Below, piece by piece: positions 1,889 through 61,386 of a stretch of 64,000 bases of DNA. Source of the stretch: Fusobacteriales bacterium (GTDB lineage Bacteria; Fusobacteriota; Fusobacteriia; Fusobacteriales; Fusobacteriaceae); the NCBI GenBank assembly GCA_020063625.1, contig JAICDD010000001.1, forward strand, positions 62,001 through 126,000, given 5' to 3'. Under the pieces are notes generated by a model. It did no database searches, was not told the origin of the DNA, and saw only the letters and a list, made by a program, of their open reading frames with translations. The translations under genes were made by a program, and so were the position numbers. Every line of letters begins with the position of its first letter. Position 1 is the first letter of the stretch.

Positions 1889-2470
1889 TTATAAATTTTC
1901 TATTTGCAATAAATCATAAAATAATTTTTCTCTTAAATCAGTAATAAATCTTGATAAAGGAAATCCCATTACATTATAAAAATCTCCCTCTATCTTTTCA
2001 ACTAAAAGATTACCTTTTTCCTGTATTCCATAAGCACCAGCTTTATCTAAAGGTTCTCCTTGGTTAATATACCATTTTATAAGTTCATTGTCTAGTTTTT
2101 TAAATGTTACTTTTGTTGTTTCATAATTTAATATTTTTATATTTTTTTCTATATTTAAAAATGAATATCCTGTAATTACTTCATGTGTTTTTTCTGATAA
2201 CATTTTTAAATATTTTTTAGCTTCTTCTTTATCTTTTGGTTTTCCTAAAATCATATTATCATATACTACAACTGTATCTGCAGCTAATACATAACTTTTT
2301 TTATTATCTTTTGCTATTTCATATGCTTTTTTATTAGCTATATCCATTATCTGTTCTGATATTTTTTCTTTATCACTTATTTCTTCTACTTCACTTACTT
2401 TTACTTCAATATTTTTAAAAATTTTTTCCATTATTTCTTTTCTTCGTGGAGACTTAGAGGCTAATATCAT
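1889..2470 (-). CDS. maf: Maf-family nucleoside triphosphate pyrophosphatase
   Basis: LASKSPRRKEI, AADTVV, GKP, DKAGAYGIQ. Confidence 0.93.
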   Translation of the reverse strand: MILASKSPRRKEIMEKIFKNIEVKVSEVEEISDKEKISEQIMDIANKKAYEIAKDNKKSYVLAADTVVVYDNMILGKPKDKEEAKKYLKMLSEKTHEVITGYSFLNIEKNIKILNYETTKVTFKKLDNELIKWYINQGEPLDKAGAYGIQEKGNLLVEKIEGDFYNVMGFPLSRFITDLREKLFYDLLQIENL

Positions 2471-4122
2471 TTTTTTCCTCCTTCTAAATAATCTAATAAT
2501 TTTTTTGTCATAAATAATCCTACTTTATATTTTGTTTGTAAATAAATAATATCTTTTTGATTATTTCTAACTTCTAATAAAATTTTATTATATAATTCTT
2601 CTCCAAAAATATTTATAAAAAATTTTTCTTTTAAATTATCAACTTTTTTTACTTCTTCTTTTATTTCTTTTTTTTCTTCTGTTTGTTTATTCTTTTTTTC
2701 TATAACATTATTTTTAATTTCTTCTATTTGCTCAATATTTTTTTTTGAATCAAAATCTAATTTTATATTTTGATTCTCTTTTTTCTTTTCTTGTATATCT
2801 GGTTTTAGATTATTTTCTTCATTAAAAAGTGTCTGAACTTCGAGTTTATTTATATTAGCTAATTCTTTATACTCTTTTTCTATTATATCATTTTTTTCAA
2901 AAATTTTCTCTTGTACAAATTTTTTATTTTCTAATTCTTTTAATTCTTCATCTTTTTCTTGTACTTCTTTTATTTTCCCTTCTTTTTCTTTTGGGATTTC
3001 TTCAATTATTTTTTTCTCTTCAACTATATTCTTATTATCCTCTATTTTTTCATCATTAATATTCTTTTCCTCTTTTAATGATTCATCTAATATTTTTATT
3101 TCTATCTCTTTTTCTTCTTTTTCTTTTGATTTTTTAGACTCTATTTTTATTTCATTAATATTAATTTTCTCTTCTTTTCTATTTTTTATCTCTCTTATTT
3201 TTCTTTCTCTCTCTTCTCTTTCTTGCTTCAATTTTTCTTTATGTTTTCTTTTTAATTCTTTTATTTTTTTTCTTCTTTCAAAAAAATTCATTTTTTTTGT
3301 TTCTTTTTCTTCTGTTTTTACTTCTTTTTTCTGTTCTTTTTTTACTTCTTCTACTTTTTTTATCTCTTTTGCTAAATTTTGAATTTCTTTATTTTCTTTT
3401 TCTTGATTAGATTTTATATTTTCAAAAAAATCATTTTTAAAATATTTTTTACTAAAGTTAAAATCATATTTTATTCTTTTACTTTGTTTTTTTTCATTAT
3501 TTTTATTGCTTTTATTTTCTTCTTTTTCAAGTCTATCTTTTATCTGTTTTCTAAGTTTCTCTTTTTTATCATCTAAAAATATATCTTCATATTTATGATT
3601 TTTTATTTTTACTGTTTCTTTTTTATTTGTTTTTTTCTTTTTTATTGTTTTTATTTTTCTATATAAAAATCCTATTATTTTACCAAAAACTATTAAAAAT
3701 ACTAATGGAAATACTAAACTATTTAAAATAATAATAACTTTTTTATTTAATAAATTAAATAATGTTCCTAATAATACTGTAAGCAATATTCCTTTTCTTT
3801 CCCAGTAATTACTAAGAATATAATTAACAATTTCTTGTTTTGATATAATATTTTCAATATTAAAATATAAATTAAATATTTCTATTTGAAATAAAAATAA
3901 TAAAAAAAACTTCATTCTAAAAGATATCATTTCATATAAATCATCTTTAAAATTAATAATTATAGCAAAAATAATCAAATAAATAGTTAATAGATTATAA
4001 TAACTTCCTAAAAAATTATAGATTATTTTATAAATATTACTATTAACTAAACTAATGGAAAGTAAAAATAATGCCGATATAAGTAATGAAATACTAATAA
4101 TTTTTTTTCGTTCTTTACCCAT
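2467..4122 (-). CDS. FtsK-like membrane protein: N-terminal TM helices, long K/E-rich linker, C-terminal FtsK-gamma-like helix-turn-helix; no motor domain
   Basis: C-term GEELYNKILLEVRNNQKDIIYLQTKYKVGLFMTKKLLDYLE resembles FtsK/SpoIIIE gamma; no Walker A/B in 551 aa. Confidence 0.6.
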   Translation of the reverse strand: MGKERKKIISISLLISALFLLSISLVNSNIYKIIYNFLGSYYNLLTIYLIIFAIIINFKDDLYEMISFRMKFFLLFLFQIEIFNLYFNIENIISKQEIVNYILSNYWERKGILLTVLLGTLFNLLNKKVIIILNSLVFPLVFLIVFGKIIGFLYRKIKTIKKKKTNKKETVKIKNHKYEDIFLDDKKEKLRKQIKDRLEKEENKSNKNNEKKQSKRIKYDFNFSKKYFKNDFFENIKSNQEKENKEIQNLAKEIKKVEEVKKEQKKEVKTEEKETKKMNFFERRKKIKELKRKHKEKLKQEREERERKIREIKNRKEEKININEIKIESKKSKEKEEKEIEIKILDESLKEEKNINDEKIEDNKNIVEEKKIIEEIPKEKEGKIKEVQEKDEELKELENKKFVQEKIFEKNDIIEKEYKELANINKLEVQTLFNEENNLKPDIQEKKKENQNIKLDFDSKKNIEQIEEIKNNVIEKKNKQTEEKKEIKEEVKKVDNLKEKFFINIFGEELYNKILLEVRNNQKDIIYLQTKYKVGLFMTKKLLDYLEGGKK

Positions 4123-4278
4123 TTACAATCCCCTTTTAAAAAAATAATATAATAAGTAAATTCTATCATATCAAATTCTTTTTTTCAAGAATTGATAGTT
4201 AGATTTTTATACTATTTACAATATTTTTCTGATATGTTAAAATGTAAAATATTATAATTTTTAAAGGAGCGATAATCT

Positions 4279-4683
4279 ATGAAAAATAAAGGTCTTATTA
4301 CAAAAATAAATGGTAATGAAATAAAAGTATATTTATTTAAAGATAGTGCTTGTAGCCATTGTTCTGGATGTAGTGATAGTGACAAAATGTCATGTGAATA
4401 TACATTTAAAACAGATACTACAGGATTAAAAGAGGGAGATATAATAGACTTTGAAATGAATAATAACTCATTATTAAAGCTTGGACTTATTGTATATATC
4501 CTTCCTATATTTTTATTATTTTTTATGTATTATATTGGTAGCTTAATTAAACTATCACAAGGTGCTAATATTTTGTTTAGTTTTTTAGGTCTTATAATAT
4601 ATTTTATTATACTTTTTGTAATTGAAAAAGTATATGGAAAAAACTTTTTAAAACAAAACATCAAAATTTCAAAAGGTGATTAA
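4279..4683 (+). CDS. RseC/MucC-like (SoxR-reducing system) membrane protein
   Basis: N-terminal CSHCSGCSDSDKMSC followed by two TM segments. Confidence 0.75.
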   Translation: MKNKGLITKINGNEIKVYLFKDSACSHCSGCSDSDKMSCEYTFKTDTTGLKEGDIIDFEMNNNSLLKLGLIVYILPIFLLFFMYYIGSLIKLSQGANILFSFLGLIIYFIILFVIEKVYGKNFLKQNIKISKGD

Positions 4684-18274: not shown

Positions 18275-18293
18275 AACTAAATATAAAAACTTT

Positions 18294-18361
18294 CACTCAT
18301 AGAAGATTGATTTACGGTCAATCGTAGAGACACCAATCCATATTATTGGCTTATATGAATG
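18294..18361 (-). ncRNA. purine riboswitch aptamer, guanine class predicted
   Basis: minus strand: cattcatataagccaataatatggattggtgtctctacgattgaccgtaaatcaatcttctatgagtg; P1/P2/P3, ATATGG, TCTAC and C at the specificity position (CTATG). Confidence 0.92.
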
Positions 18362-18394
18362 AACTATTCATTATTCTATTTTTAAATTTACAAG

Positions 18395-57925: not shown

Positions 57926-58777
57926 ATGAAATACAATTTATTAGGCAACTCTGATTTAAAAGTTTCAAGAATAGGTTTTGGATGTTGGGCTACTTCAAAA
58001 CATGGTTGGAAAGATGTAAATTTAAATGATGCAATAAAAACATTAGAAACCTCTTTTGAATATGGTATAAATTTTTATGATACTGCTCCAATTTATGGTT
58101 TTGGAAAATCTGAAGAAATTTTAGGAAATACATTTAAAAGTATACGAAAAGATATTATAATTGCTACAAAATTTGGTTTACGTTGGAATGAATTTGGAAA
58201 AGTTACACATAACCTTTCTAGAGATAGTATAATGTATGAGATAGATGCTAGTTTAAAAAGACTTAAAACTGACTATATAGACCTTTATCAACTACATTGG
58301 CCTGATTATAAAACTGATATTATAGAAGTAATAGATACACTAAAAGATTTAAAATCTCAAAAAATTATACGACATATTGGTGTGTCGAATCTTGATATTA
58401 ATACTTTAGAAAAAATATCACCTTTTATTGTTTCTACTCAAAATAAATATAATTTATTAGAAAAAGATGTTGAAAAAGATATTTTACCTTTTTGCAAAGA
58501 AAAAAATATTGGGTTTATAGCTTACAGTCCATTAGCTCAAGGGTTGTTATCTGGAAAAATCGATAATACTTATAAATTTTCAAAAAATGATATTCGTAGA
58601 TTTAATCCTTTATTTAAAGATAAAGAGTTATTTAATAAAATTGAAAATATCGATAAACCTCTCATTAATAGTGCTCTAAAATTTCTTTTAGAAAAAAAAG
58701 AAGTTTCTTCTATTTTAATTAGTATGACAAAATTAAATCATTTAATAGAAAATATAAAAATAGCAGAAAGCATATAG
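57926..58777 (+). CDS. aldo/keto reductase
   Basis: MKYNLLGNSDLKVSRIGFGCWATSKHGW, FYDTAPIYGFGKSEEILG. Confidence 0.94.
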   Translation: MKYNLLGNSDLKVSRIGFGCWATSKHGWKDVNLNDAIKTLETSFEYGINFYDTAPIYGFGKSEEILGNTFKSIRKDIIIATKFGLRWNEFGKVTHNLSRDSIMYEIDASLKRLKTDYIDLYQLHWPDYKTDIIEVIDTLKDLKSQKIIRHIGVSNLDINTLEKISPFIVSTQNKYNLLEKDVEKDILPFCKEKNIGFIAYSPLAQGLLSGKIDNTYKFSKNDIRRFNPLFKDKELFNKIENIDKPLINSALKFLLEKKEVSSILISMTKLNHLIENIKIAESI

Positions 58778-58792
58778 CTCTCTGCTATTTTT
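58756..58792. terminator. bidirectional terminator overlapping the 3' end of the aldo/keto reductase gene
   Basis: aaaaatagcaga-..-tctgctattttt. Confidence 0.8.
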
Positions 58793-58870
58793 AGTGTATA
58801 AAGGGAACTACCATTTCTGGTAATTAAGAGTCAATCAAGCTCTAACTTGATTTGTGGAAAGGGATATTCC
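58756..58870 (-). ncRNA. candidate sRNA 1
   Basis: TTGACA-17-TATATT at 58877-58905; stem-loops uggaa-uauccc u-uucca, aucaag-cuugau, uacca-gaaa-uggua; terminator. Confidence 0.6.
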
Positions 58871-58876
58871 ATTAGT

Positions 58877-58905
58877 AATATATCATATCTCAATAAGTAT
58901 GTCAA
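58877..58905 (-). promoter_or_regulatory. promoter of candidate sRNA 1
   Basis: TTGACA-17-TATATT. Confidence 0.75.
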
Positions 58906-58961
58906 TATTTTTATTTAACTTTTTATTATAAGTCATCATTTTAAATGACTTAAATCTATAT

Positions 58962-59073
58962 TTAATTAACCGGCTAGGGGTTACTAGCCGGTTAATTAAA
59001 GGGATTTAAATTGCTTTAAGCAATTTTAGGGGTTAATCTAGGGTTATTCGATAGGAAAGGGATATCTTCCTAT
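58962..59073 (-). ncRNA. candidate sRNA 2 (3' end uncertain)
   Basis: TTGAAA-17-TATAAT at 59080-59108; ataggaa-gatatccct-ttcctat, aaattgctt-aagcaattt, 15-bp ttaattaaccggcta/tagccggttaattaa stem with gtaacccc loop. Confidence 0.6.
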
Positions 59074-59079
59074 GTTCTT

Positions 59080-59108
59080 ATTATAGAATATATTATAAAA
59101 AATTTCAA
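59080..59108 (-). promoter_or_regulatory. promoter of candidate sRNA 2
   Basis: TTGAAA-17-TATAAT. Confidence 0.75.
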
Positions 59109-59205
59109 CCTTTTTTTGAGAATTTTAATAAAAAAAATAATTGTCTTTCTAACAAAATATCTGGTATAATTTTATATATAATTATTAGTTTTAGGAGTTG
59201 CATAT

Positions 59206-61386
59206 ATGAATATTATAAGTTTTAGAGTTGCGATAATATATTTTATTTTTAGTTTTTTATGGGTGTTTTATTCAGATAAATTTATTTTAAACATAACTAC
59301 CGACCCTGTTATTCTTACACAAATACAAACTTATAAAGGTATTTCTTTTATTTTTATTAGTTCACTTTTAATATATTTATTAATTTATTTTGAATTAAAA
59401 GTCCGAAAAAAAATAACTAATGAAAAAATAAAAAACGAGTTATTAATGGAAAATATTATTAATAATAGCTCCTCTTTTATATTTGTAAAAAATTTAAACG
59501 GTGACTACATTTTAACAAATAAAATTTATAATGATATTTTAATTAATCACAAAGATTTTTTTAATGAAGATGTTTTAAATAAAATTCATTTAACTGATGA
59601 AGAGGCTAAAATAAAAAAAGAAAAAGTTTCTATAGAGATCTCTGTAAATAATCAAACTTTTTTAATTGAAAAATTTCCTATTTTTGATAACTCTGGAAGT
59701 TTTAAATATATTGGTGGTATTGGTACTGACATTACTACAATTAAGCAAAATCAATTAAATAACGAAGTAAAATCTCTTGTTTTTGAAAAATCCTCTGAAG
59801 GAATTATTATTTTTAATAAAAATGGTAAAATCTTAGAAACAAATAACGCTTTTAAAAATATTTTTTCATCTGATAATAAAATTAAAACTATTGATGATTT
59901 TAAAAAGTTTTTTAGCGATAAAAATGAATTTTTTTATTTAATAAATTCTAAAGAACCTCTTTCAAGAGAATTTTGGATGAAAAAAGATAGTAATAAACTT
60001 TTTTCTACTTGGATAAATTTTATGCCAATAGATAATAATACTTTTATTATGTTAATAGAAGATATTTCTCAAGATAAAATAGATGGATTAACTAATAAAG
60101 AAGTTAGTAATATTGACAAACTTACTGGCTTACCAAATAGATTTTTATTTAGAGATAGGCTTTCTCAGACTATTATAAATAGCAAACTAAATAATCTTAA
60201 ATTTGCTTTAATTTATTTAGATATAGATAATTTCAATTCAATCAACACTTACTATAATTTTTCTATAGGAGATAGACTTTTAAAAGAGATAAGTAATAGA
60301 ATTTTAGCTATTATAGAACCAAATTATACTTTTTCACGAATAAGTGGTGATGAATTTGGATTAATTATTCCTGGTTTTAAATCATTAACTGAATTAAATA
60401 ATTCCTTAGAAAAAATTCAAAATCTATTTAATAAAAATTTTTATATTAACAATCATGAAATAAATATCTCTATTAGTTTAGGAGTATCTATTTATCCAGA
60501 TAATGGGTTAACTATTGATACTTTAGAAAAAAATAGTATTTTTGCACTTAAACATGTAAAAAATAATGGTAAAAATAGTATTTATTATTTTAATGATATA
60601 TTAAATAAGCAAAATATTGAAAGAATTGAAATATCAAATCATCTAAAAAATGCATTAAAATTTAATGAATTAAAACTGTATTATCAACCACAAGTTGATA
60701 TATCTAGTGGTGAAATAATTGGGGTAGAATCTTTAATTCGATGGAAACATTCTACACGAGGATTTATTTCTCCAGCTATTTTTATACCAATTGCTGAAGA
60801 AAATGGTATGATTCATCAAATTGGAGAATGGGTTATTGATACTTCACTTAATAGTCTAAAAGAGTGGAATAATCTATTTAATAAAAAAATAGAAATTTCT
60901 ATAAATTTATCACCTCTTCAATTTAGTGGTGTTAATATTGTCGAATCAATTTATAAAAAAGCAAAAAAACTAAATTTAGATCCTGAATACATCACCTTTG
61001 AAATTACAGAAGGAATTCTTATTGAAGATGTAAATAAAGCTAATGACATAATAAATAATTTTAAAAAATATGGTTTTAAAATAGCACTTGATGATTTTGG
61101 TACTGGATATTCATCTCTAAACTATTTAAGACTTTTTAAAATTGATAAATTAAAAGTTGATAGAATATTTATTGCTGATTATCCAGAAAAAGATGAAGGG
61201 AAACTACTTGAATTAATTATTGATCTAGGAAAATATTTAAATTTTGAAATAATTGCTGAAGGTGTTGAAACTTCTGAACAATATGAATTTATTAAAGATA
61301 AAAAAGTTGATACTATTCAAGGATATTATTTTTATAAACCTATGCAAAAGTATAAAATAGAAGAATTATTAAAAAATAATTCATAA
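59206..61386 (+). CDS. membrane PAS-GGDEF-EAL cyclic-di-GMP protein
   Basis: DKLTGLPNRFLFRDRL, SRISGDEFGLI, GVESLIRWKH, ALDDFGTGYSSLNYL, AEGVET. Confidence 0.95.
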   Translation: MNIISFRVAIIYFIFSFLWVFYSDKFILNITTDPVILTQIQTYKGISFIFISSLLIYLLIYFELKVRKKITNEKIKNELLMENIINNSSSFIFVKNLNGDYILTNKIYNDILINHKDFFNEDVLNKIHLTDEEAKIKKEKVSIEISVNNQTFLIEKFPIFDNSGSFKYIGGIGTDITTIKQNQLNNEVKSLVFEKSSEGIIIFNKNGKILETNNAFKNIFSSDNKIKTIDDFKKFFSDKNEFFYLINSKEPLSREFWMKKDSNKLFSTWINFMPIDNNTFIMLIEDISQDKIDGLTNKEVSNIDKLTGLPNRFLFRDRLSQTIINSKLNNLKFALIYLDIDNFNSINTYYNFSIGDRLLKEISNRILAIIEPNYTFSRISGDEFGLIIPGFKSLTELNNSLEKIQNLFNKNFYINNHEINISISLGVSIYPDNGLTIDTLEKNSIFALKHVKNNGKNSIYYFNDILNKQNIERIEISNHLKNALKFNELKLYYQPQVDISSGEIIGVESLIRWKHSTRGFISPAIFIPIAEENGMIHQIGEWVIDTSLNSLKEWNNLFNKKIEISINLSPLQFSGVNIVESIYKKAKKLNLDPEYITFEITEGILIEDVNKANDIINNFKKYGFKIALDDFGTGYSSLNYLRLFKIDKLKVDRIFIADYPEKDEGKLLELIIDLGKYLNFEIIAEGVETSEQYEFIKDKKVDTIQGYYFYKPMQKYKIEELLKNNS

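What the first reader, a model, noticed from the sequence alone, without database searches (positions are those of the whole stretch)
58756..59108. Two tandem minus-strand sRNA candidates with repeated unpaired CCC motifs
Seen: in the gap between the aldo/keto reductase and GGDEF/EAL genes, the minus strand carries TTGAAA-17-TATAAT and TTGACA-17-TATATT. Each is followed within about 10 nt by a hairpin presenting AUAUCCCU in its loop (ataggaa-gatatccct-ttcctat; tggaa-tatccct-ttcca). RNA 2 has five C-runs (UAUCCCU, AACCCU, AACCCC, AAUCCCUUU, GUAACCCC) mostly in loops or linkers; RNA 1 has UAUCCCU and UUCCCUU and ends at an intrinsic terminator. No ORF explains this. Established knowledge: C-rich loop motifs (UCCC) in Gram-positive sRNAs such as RsaE/RoxS pair with G-rich Shine-Dalgarno regions. 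Inference: sibling duplicated sRNAs that target GGGA-containing ribosome-binding sites.
Basis: partly seen in the sequence, partly recalled or inferred. Interest (0 to 1): 0.8.

Follow-up and report, generated by a model that had tools for sequence, protein, structure and literature searches.

The report
Twin C-rich small RNA genes
Two neighbouring small RNA genes in a fusobacterium genome, one of them conserved letter for letter in its only sequenced congener, expose repeated CCC stretches that probably stick to the ribosome-binding sites of other messages; it is a new, genus-specific example of a known kind of bacterial regulator.

Summary
On the minus strand between the aldo/keto reductase and GGDEF/EAL genes of a Fusobacteriota genome there are two strong sigma-70-type promoters, each followed after 5-6 nt by a 5'-terminal hairpin with a UAUCCCU loop. 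The upstream RNA (59073-58963) is 111/111 identical in the only congener held. Neighbouring genes keep just 56-67% of fourfold-degenerate sites, and no longer identical non-coding run turned up in about 0.8 Mb sampled. The downstream RNA (58871-58757) keeps its promoter boxes, CCC loop, three hairpins and one compensatory pair, and is a diverged paralogue. All C-runs are predicted unpaired. No ORF, Rfam family, cis-leader role or repeat element explains the locus. No homologue was found in the other 96 Fusobacteriota genomes searched, so the pair looks genus-restricted. Most likely these are Hfq-independent trans-acting sRNAs whose redundant C-rich sites occlude G-rich Shine-Dalgarno sequences, as in Listeria LhrC, RsaE/RoxS and F. 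nucleatum FoxI/FoxJ. The specific claim of GGGA targets is not supported: seed complements are not enriched at start codons. The best conserved candidates pair AACCCC with AGGGGTTA upstream of a diguanylate cyclase, a histidine kinase and a chemotaxis receptor; none is significant alone. Transcription is untested.

The parts
59080..59108 (-). Promoter of RNA 2: -35 TTGAAA (59108-59103), 17-nt spacer, -10 TATAAT (59085-59080)
   Evidence: 11/12 match, one of the two best sites in 2 kb; both hexamers and the spacing conserved in congener G001 although the spacer differs
58963..59073 (-). RNA 2 gene body (upstream sRNA), 111 nt; predicted +1 at about 59073
   Evidence: 111/111 identical to G001 with both ends of the identity at the predicted +1 and at the end of the last hairpin; longest identical non-coding run in the sampled stretches
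59051..59073 (-). RNA 2 hairpin 1 at the very 5' end, CCC (59061-59059) in the loop
   Evidence: Fold
59027..59050 (-). RNA 2 unpaired linker 1 with AACCCU and UUAACCCCUAA
   Evidence: Unpaired probability of the C-runs 0.99 and 0.89; complementary to AGGGGTTA at candidate target start sites
59008..59026 (-). RNA 2 hairpin 2
   Evidence: Fold
58999..59007 (-). RNA 2 unpaired linker 2, AAAUCCCUU
   Evidence: Unpaired probability 0.98; counterpart AAUUCCCUUUA in RNA 1
58963..58998 (-). RNA 2 hairpin 3, 15-bp stem with UAACCCC in the loop; probable intrinsic terminator with weak U-tract
   Evidence: Fold; no second copy elsewhere in the genome
58877..58905 (-). Promoter of RNA 1: TTGACA-17-TATATT, extended -10
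   Evidence: 11/12 match; boxes conserved in G001 (TTGACT, TATATT) while the spacer differs
58757..58871 (-). RNA 1 gene body (downstream sRNA), about 115-120 nt
   Evidence: Conserved in G001; model R1 of RNA 2 also finds it, E 0.0094 in 82 kb
58855..58871 (-). RNA 1 hairpin 1 at the 5' end, loop UAUCCCU
   Evidence: Identical in G001 within a 27-nt identical run that starts at 58872; TATCCCTTTCC is shared with RNA 2
58806..58852 (-). RNA 1 hairpins 2 and 3 with linker GACUCUUAA (AACCCUUAA in G001)
   Evidence: Hairpin 3 has one C-G to U-A compensatory change and one U-G to U-A change; hairpin 2 keeps its stem although the loop changes length
58794..58807 (-). RNA 1 linker UUCCCUUUAUACAC with an unpaired C-run
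   Evidence: Identical in G001, unpaired probability of the C-run 1.0
58755..58793 (-). RNA 1 intrinsic terminator, overlapping the convergent aldo/keto reductase stop codon (58777)
   Evidence: in G001 RNA 1 has its own terminator plus a second, reductase-side hairpin

Best explanation
The locus encodes two tandem, paralogous, independently transcribed small regulatory RNAs of about 110-120 nt. Each begins with a stem-loop at its exact 5' end that presents UAUCCCU and carries further CCC runs in unpaired linkers (and, in RNA 2, in the terminator loop). They most likely act in trans without Hfq: a C-run makes first contact with the G-rich Shine-Dalgarno region of a target mRNA, the pairing extends into the flanking letters, and ribosome loading is blocked. 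Several redundant C-sites per molecule would allow different targets, or more than one mRNA, to be bound. Shown here by sequence: predicted structure, conservation, paralogy, promoters, absence of a conserved ORF, no downstream gene on the same strand before the convergent reductase. Inferred: transcription, trans-action, Shine-Dalgarno occlusion and target identity.
For: RNA 2 is 111/111 identical in the congener, against 56-67% identity at fourfold-degenerate sites of three neighbour genes; it is longer than any other identical non-coding run found in about 0.79 Mb vs 0.82 Mb sampled, including tRNA genes. Identity begins 5-6 nt after each -10 box, and the boxes are conserved while spacers drift. 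Stable folds, z -9.2 and -8.0. All C-runs unpaired in both species. Ordered paralogy of the two RNAs. No conserved ORF: the 24-26 aa frames diverge after a 1-nt indel. The next gene downstream is on the opposite strand, so it is not a leader. Hfq not found, as in F. nucleatum (PMC11005410). C-rich sites pairing with G-rich target sites are experimentally shown for FoxI/FoxJ in the same phylum (PMC11005410) and for LhrC, with sites in loop A, linker and terminator loop as in RNA 2 (PMC4132741).
Against: No transcript data. Only two genomes carry the locus, so covariation is thin: one clean compensatory pair in RNA 1 and none in RNA 2, whose sequence does not vary. Seed complements are not enriched at start codons over C-run-preserving controls, in single genomes or in 158 orthologue pairs. 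RNA 2's terminator lacks a strong U-tract in the window.
Confidence: 0.66

Rival explanations
1. The two RNAs are real but work by binding a protein (a decoy for a C-rich-RNA or hairpin-binding protein such as a KH-domain or cold-shock protein) rather than by base pairing with mRNAs.
For: Several similar unpaired C-runs per molecule; complete identity of linkers as well as stems in RNA 2; no enrichment of complements at start codons.
Against: The letters flanking the C-runs differ from site to site (UAUCCCUUU, UAACCCUAG, UUAACCCCUAA, AUUCCCUUUAU), more like different pairing seeds than one protein site; characterised C-rich sRNAs of low-GC bacteria pair with mRNAs (PMC4132741, PMC11005410).
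Confidence: 0.15
2. One long RNA of about 320 nt is made from the upstream promoter through both units, with the second promoter internal, and is processed; the two units are domains of one regulator.
For: RNA 2 lacks a strong terminator U-tract in the window, and the scan finds only the terminator after RNA 1.
Against: The roughly 57 nt between RNA 2 and the RNA 1 promoter diverge apart from a short hairpin stem; the congener has a U-rich tail after hairpin 3; the RNA 1 promoter is conserved.
Confidence: 0.1
3. The conserved stretch is a DNA element (a protein-binding or recombination palindrome, or control region of the divergent GGDEF/EAL gene), not an RNA gene.
For: Hairpin 3 is a perfect 15-bp inverted repeat in DNA; the region lies upstream of the divergent GGDEF/EAL gene.
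Against: Identity starts at the predicted +1 of a conserved promoter and covers single-stranded linkers; a C-G to U-A compensatory pair in RNA 1; no further copies in the genome; the GGDEF/EAL promoter-like site (59141-59170) lies outside it.
Confidence: 0.05
4. RNA 1 is a short leaderless mRNA (MEYPFPQIK...) or the locus is a type I toxin-antitoxin module.
For: ATG at 58872-58870 opens a 13-codon frame in the window and a 15-codon frame in the congener.
Against: A 1-nt indel shifts the frame after codon 9 while the hairpin stem stays intact; RNA 2 has no such frame; no small ORF typical of a type I toxin is conserved between the genomes.
Confidence: 0.03

Closest known systems
LhrC multicopy sRNAs of Listeria monocytogenes (PMC4132741)
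   Same: Multicopy sRNAs with redundant UCCC sites in a 5' loop, a single-stranded linker and the terminator loop; the same plan as RNA 2
   Different: No Rfam similarity; different phylum; LhrC answers to envelope stress through LisRK, the trigger here is unknown; here hairpin 1 sits at the exact predicted 5' end
FoxI and FoxJ of Fusobacterium nucleatum (PMC11005410)
   Same: Same phylum, Hfq-less host, C-stretch seeds (linear in FoxI, hairpin loop in FoxJ), overlapping targets
   Different: sigma-E promoters there, sigma-70-type here; foxJ lies upstream of ylmH, between der and the 4.5S RNA gene, whereas here the 4.5S RNA is on another contig without those neighbours; one C-stretch described there against two to five here
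RsaE/RoxS of Staphylococcus and Bacillus
   Same: UCCC motifs in unpaired regions that pair with G-rich ribosome-binding sites (established knowledge; PMC4132741 cites it)
   Different: No match to the Rfam model even at E 10; single gene, different architecture
Sibling sRNAs such as NgncR_162/163 of Neisseria (PMC13104608, abstract)
   Same: Sibling sRNAs acting as post-transcriptional regulators
   Different: Unrelated sequence and targets

Membership tests
Trans-acting C-rich (UCCC) sRNAs as a functional class | Free-standing intergenic transcription unit with promoter and terminator | tested here: met
   By sequence only; RNA 2 terminator weak in the window; transcription itself could not be tested
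Trans-acting C-rich (UCCC) sRNAs as a functional class | C-runs unpaired and conserved | tested here: met
Trans-acting C-rich (UCCC) sRNAs as a functional class | Complementary targets at ribosome-binding sites | tested here: inconclusive
   Individual conserved candidates, no overall enrichment
RsaE/RoxS family (Rfam) | Match to the family covariance model | tested here: not met
   not listed even at E <= 10
LhrC family | Match to a family covariance model | tested here: not met
   Not among the Rfam matches at E <= 10; only the plan is alike
FoxI/FoxJ | sigma-E dependent promoter | tested here: inconclusive
   Both promoters fit the sigma-70 consensus 11/12; the fusobacterial sigma-E motif itself was not scanned for
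FoxJ | Gene order der - foxJ - ylmH next to the 4.5S RNA gene | tested here: not met
   The 4.5S RNA is on contig C24, this locus on C1

The most novel reading that the evidence does not exclude
A genus-specific pair of sRNAs whose several C-rich sites separately tune sensory and c-di-GMP genes (diguanylate cyclase, histidine kinase, chemotaxis receptor), with the pair itself set beside a GGDEF/EAL gene.
Probability: 0.12. Interest if true: 0.55.

Novelty: new member of a known kind. Interest (0 to 1): 0.4.

Why it matters
Little is known of sRNAs in Fusobacteriota outside F. nucleatum. A 111-nt RNA gene frozen between two species that have lost about 35-45% of their fourfold-site identity must be under strong constraint over its whole length, linkers included. 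Its recurrence of the LhrC plan in another phylum without Hfq would be a clean case of convergent design: several interchangeable C-rich contact sites per sRNA in AT-rich genomes. Its apparent restriction to one genus illustrates how fast such regulators turn over.

Tried and rejected
Rfam at gathering score and at E <= 10: nothing near a family cut-off. Pattern GGAA-N0-6-TATCCCTTTCC in 98 Fusobacteriota genomes: three hits outside the genus, all inside or antisense to protein genes. Covariance models of each RNA over the same 98 genomes: only the genus; the weak other matches that I aligned are terminators or lack the CCC motifs. Linker pattern AACCCYTAA-N10-40-TCCCTTTA: five hits outside the genus against about 15 for the reversed control, taken as chance. 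Viral contigs: none. The apparent compensatory pairs in the RNA 1 terminator were discounted because that hairpin is probably not orthologous: the window's terminator matches the congener's reductase-side hairpin better. The 12-nt complement (AAAGGGATTTAA with RNA 2 linker 2) before a 501+ aa sensor-like gene (no Pfam match) was discounted because it also reads as the coding end (..KKGI-stop) of the preceding frame, which would explain its conservation. The SIMPL-protein candidate was dropped as a conserved target because the congener's similar hit belongs to another gene.

Full report
What is there. The window lies in a Fusobacteriota genome (relatives of the neighbouring aldo/keto reductase at 60-61% identity are an Ilyobacter polytropus MAG and Fusobacteriaceae UBA2433). 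Between the reductase (57926-58777, +) and a GGDEF-EAL gene (59206-61386, +) the minus strand carries two promoters matching the sigma-70 consensus in 11 of 12 positions. Such sites are common in this AT-rich DNA (18 found, 17.0 expected), so alone they mean little.

Conservation. One congener is held (G001). It has the same gene order, and the region aligns at 86% overall. Within it RNA 2 is identical over 111 nt, from 6 nt after the -10 box to the last bases of its third hairpin. Fourfold-degenerate sites of the three neighbour genes are 67, 64 and 56% identical. In about 0.79 Mb of this genome compared with about 0.82 Mb of the congener (a sample of stretches), no longer identical non-coding run was found; tRNA genes gave 76-82 nt. 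RNA 1 is also conserved: a 27-nt identical run opens at 58872, the linker UUCCCUUUAUACAC is identical, hairpin 2 keeps its stem although its loop changes length by one base, and hairpin 3 has a C-G to U-A compensatory change. In both promoters the boxes and spacing are kept while the spacer letters change.

Structure. Both RNAs fold far better than shuffles. Each begins with a hairpin at the predicted 5' end. All runs of three or more C are predicted unpaired in all four sequences; few shuffles do as well. RNA 1 and RNA 2 share, in order, the loop UAUCCCUUUCC, GAUUAACCC(C)UAA, a hairpin, and A(A/U)UCCCUUUA. The second element has decayed to GAUUGACUCUUAA in the window's RNA 1 but is intact in the congener. 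The local alignment of the congener's RNA 1 with RNA 2 beats 1000 of 1000 shuffles (990 of 1000 without hairpin 1); the window's own RNA 1 beats 975 of 1000 with hairpin 1 and is not above shuffles without it. I read the two genes as duplicates.

The 3' ends. RNA 1 ends at a good intrinsic terminator that overlaps the convergent reductase's stop codon. In the congener there are two hairpins here, one for RNA 1 and one by the reductase; the window's single hairpin resembles the second, so a small deletion has probably fused them. RNA 2's third hairpin is the likely terminator, with a weak U-tract in the window and a better one in the congener.

What it is not. No ORF is conserved. No gene follows on the minus strand before the convergent reductase, so it is not a riboswitch or attenuator. 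It is not a dispersed repeat. No Rfam family fits. Other Fusobacteriota lack it by every search made.

How it probably works. Hfq was not found in either genome, consistent with F. nucleatum, which lacks Hfq and ProQ (PMC11005410). In that phylum FoxI and FoxJ use C-stretches to pair with target mRNAs (PMC11005410), and in Listeria LhrC uses three UCCC sites, in a loop, a linker and the terminator loop, to bind the G-rich region upstream of the lapB start codon (PMC4132741). RNA 2 has that same plan. I infer the same mechanism. The target side is weak. Ribosome-binding sites here are mostly AGGAG/GGAGG. AAGGGAT before ATG is not above a reversed control. In 656 genes and 158 orthologue pairs, complements to the C-rich sites are about as frequent as for controls with shuffled flanks. 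Candidates that keep the complement in both species are a diguanylate cyclase (10-nt AGGGGTTAAT, -19.7 and -16.9 kcal/mol), a PAS histidine kinase (AGGGGTTAA, -15.8 in both) and a chemotaxis receptor-like gene (AGGGGTTAT, -16.5 and -14.5; the congener's copy has MCP domains, the window genome's frame is read for 203 aa). That all three are signalling proteins is suggestive only.

Verdict. Very probably real RNA genes, genus-restricted in the genomes held, of a known functional kind; targets and trigger unknown.

Noticed in passing
window 4146-4220: 75 nt identical in the congener, in the divergent intergenic region between a 551-aa minus-strand gene (2467-4122) and a cysteine-rich RseC-like gene (4279-4683), with a palindrome-like AATTCTTTTTTTCAAGAATT; possibly a shared operator.
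   Followed up: partly
window 18280-18378: Purine riboswitch on the minus strand (Rfam RF00167, 68.6 bits).
   Followed up: no
window 58755-58793 and L023 3000-3110: The congener has two terminator-like hairpins between RNA 1 and the reductase where the window has one, which looks like a deletion that fused the sRNA terminator with the reductase terminator.
   Followed up: partly
window 58925-58950: A further hairpin (AAGTCAT...ATGACTT) lies between RNA 2 and the RNA 1 promoter; in the congener it is longer (CTATTTAAAGTCATT...AATGACTTTAAATAG) and is not followed by a U-tract. Role unknown.
   Followed up: no
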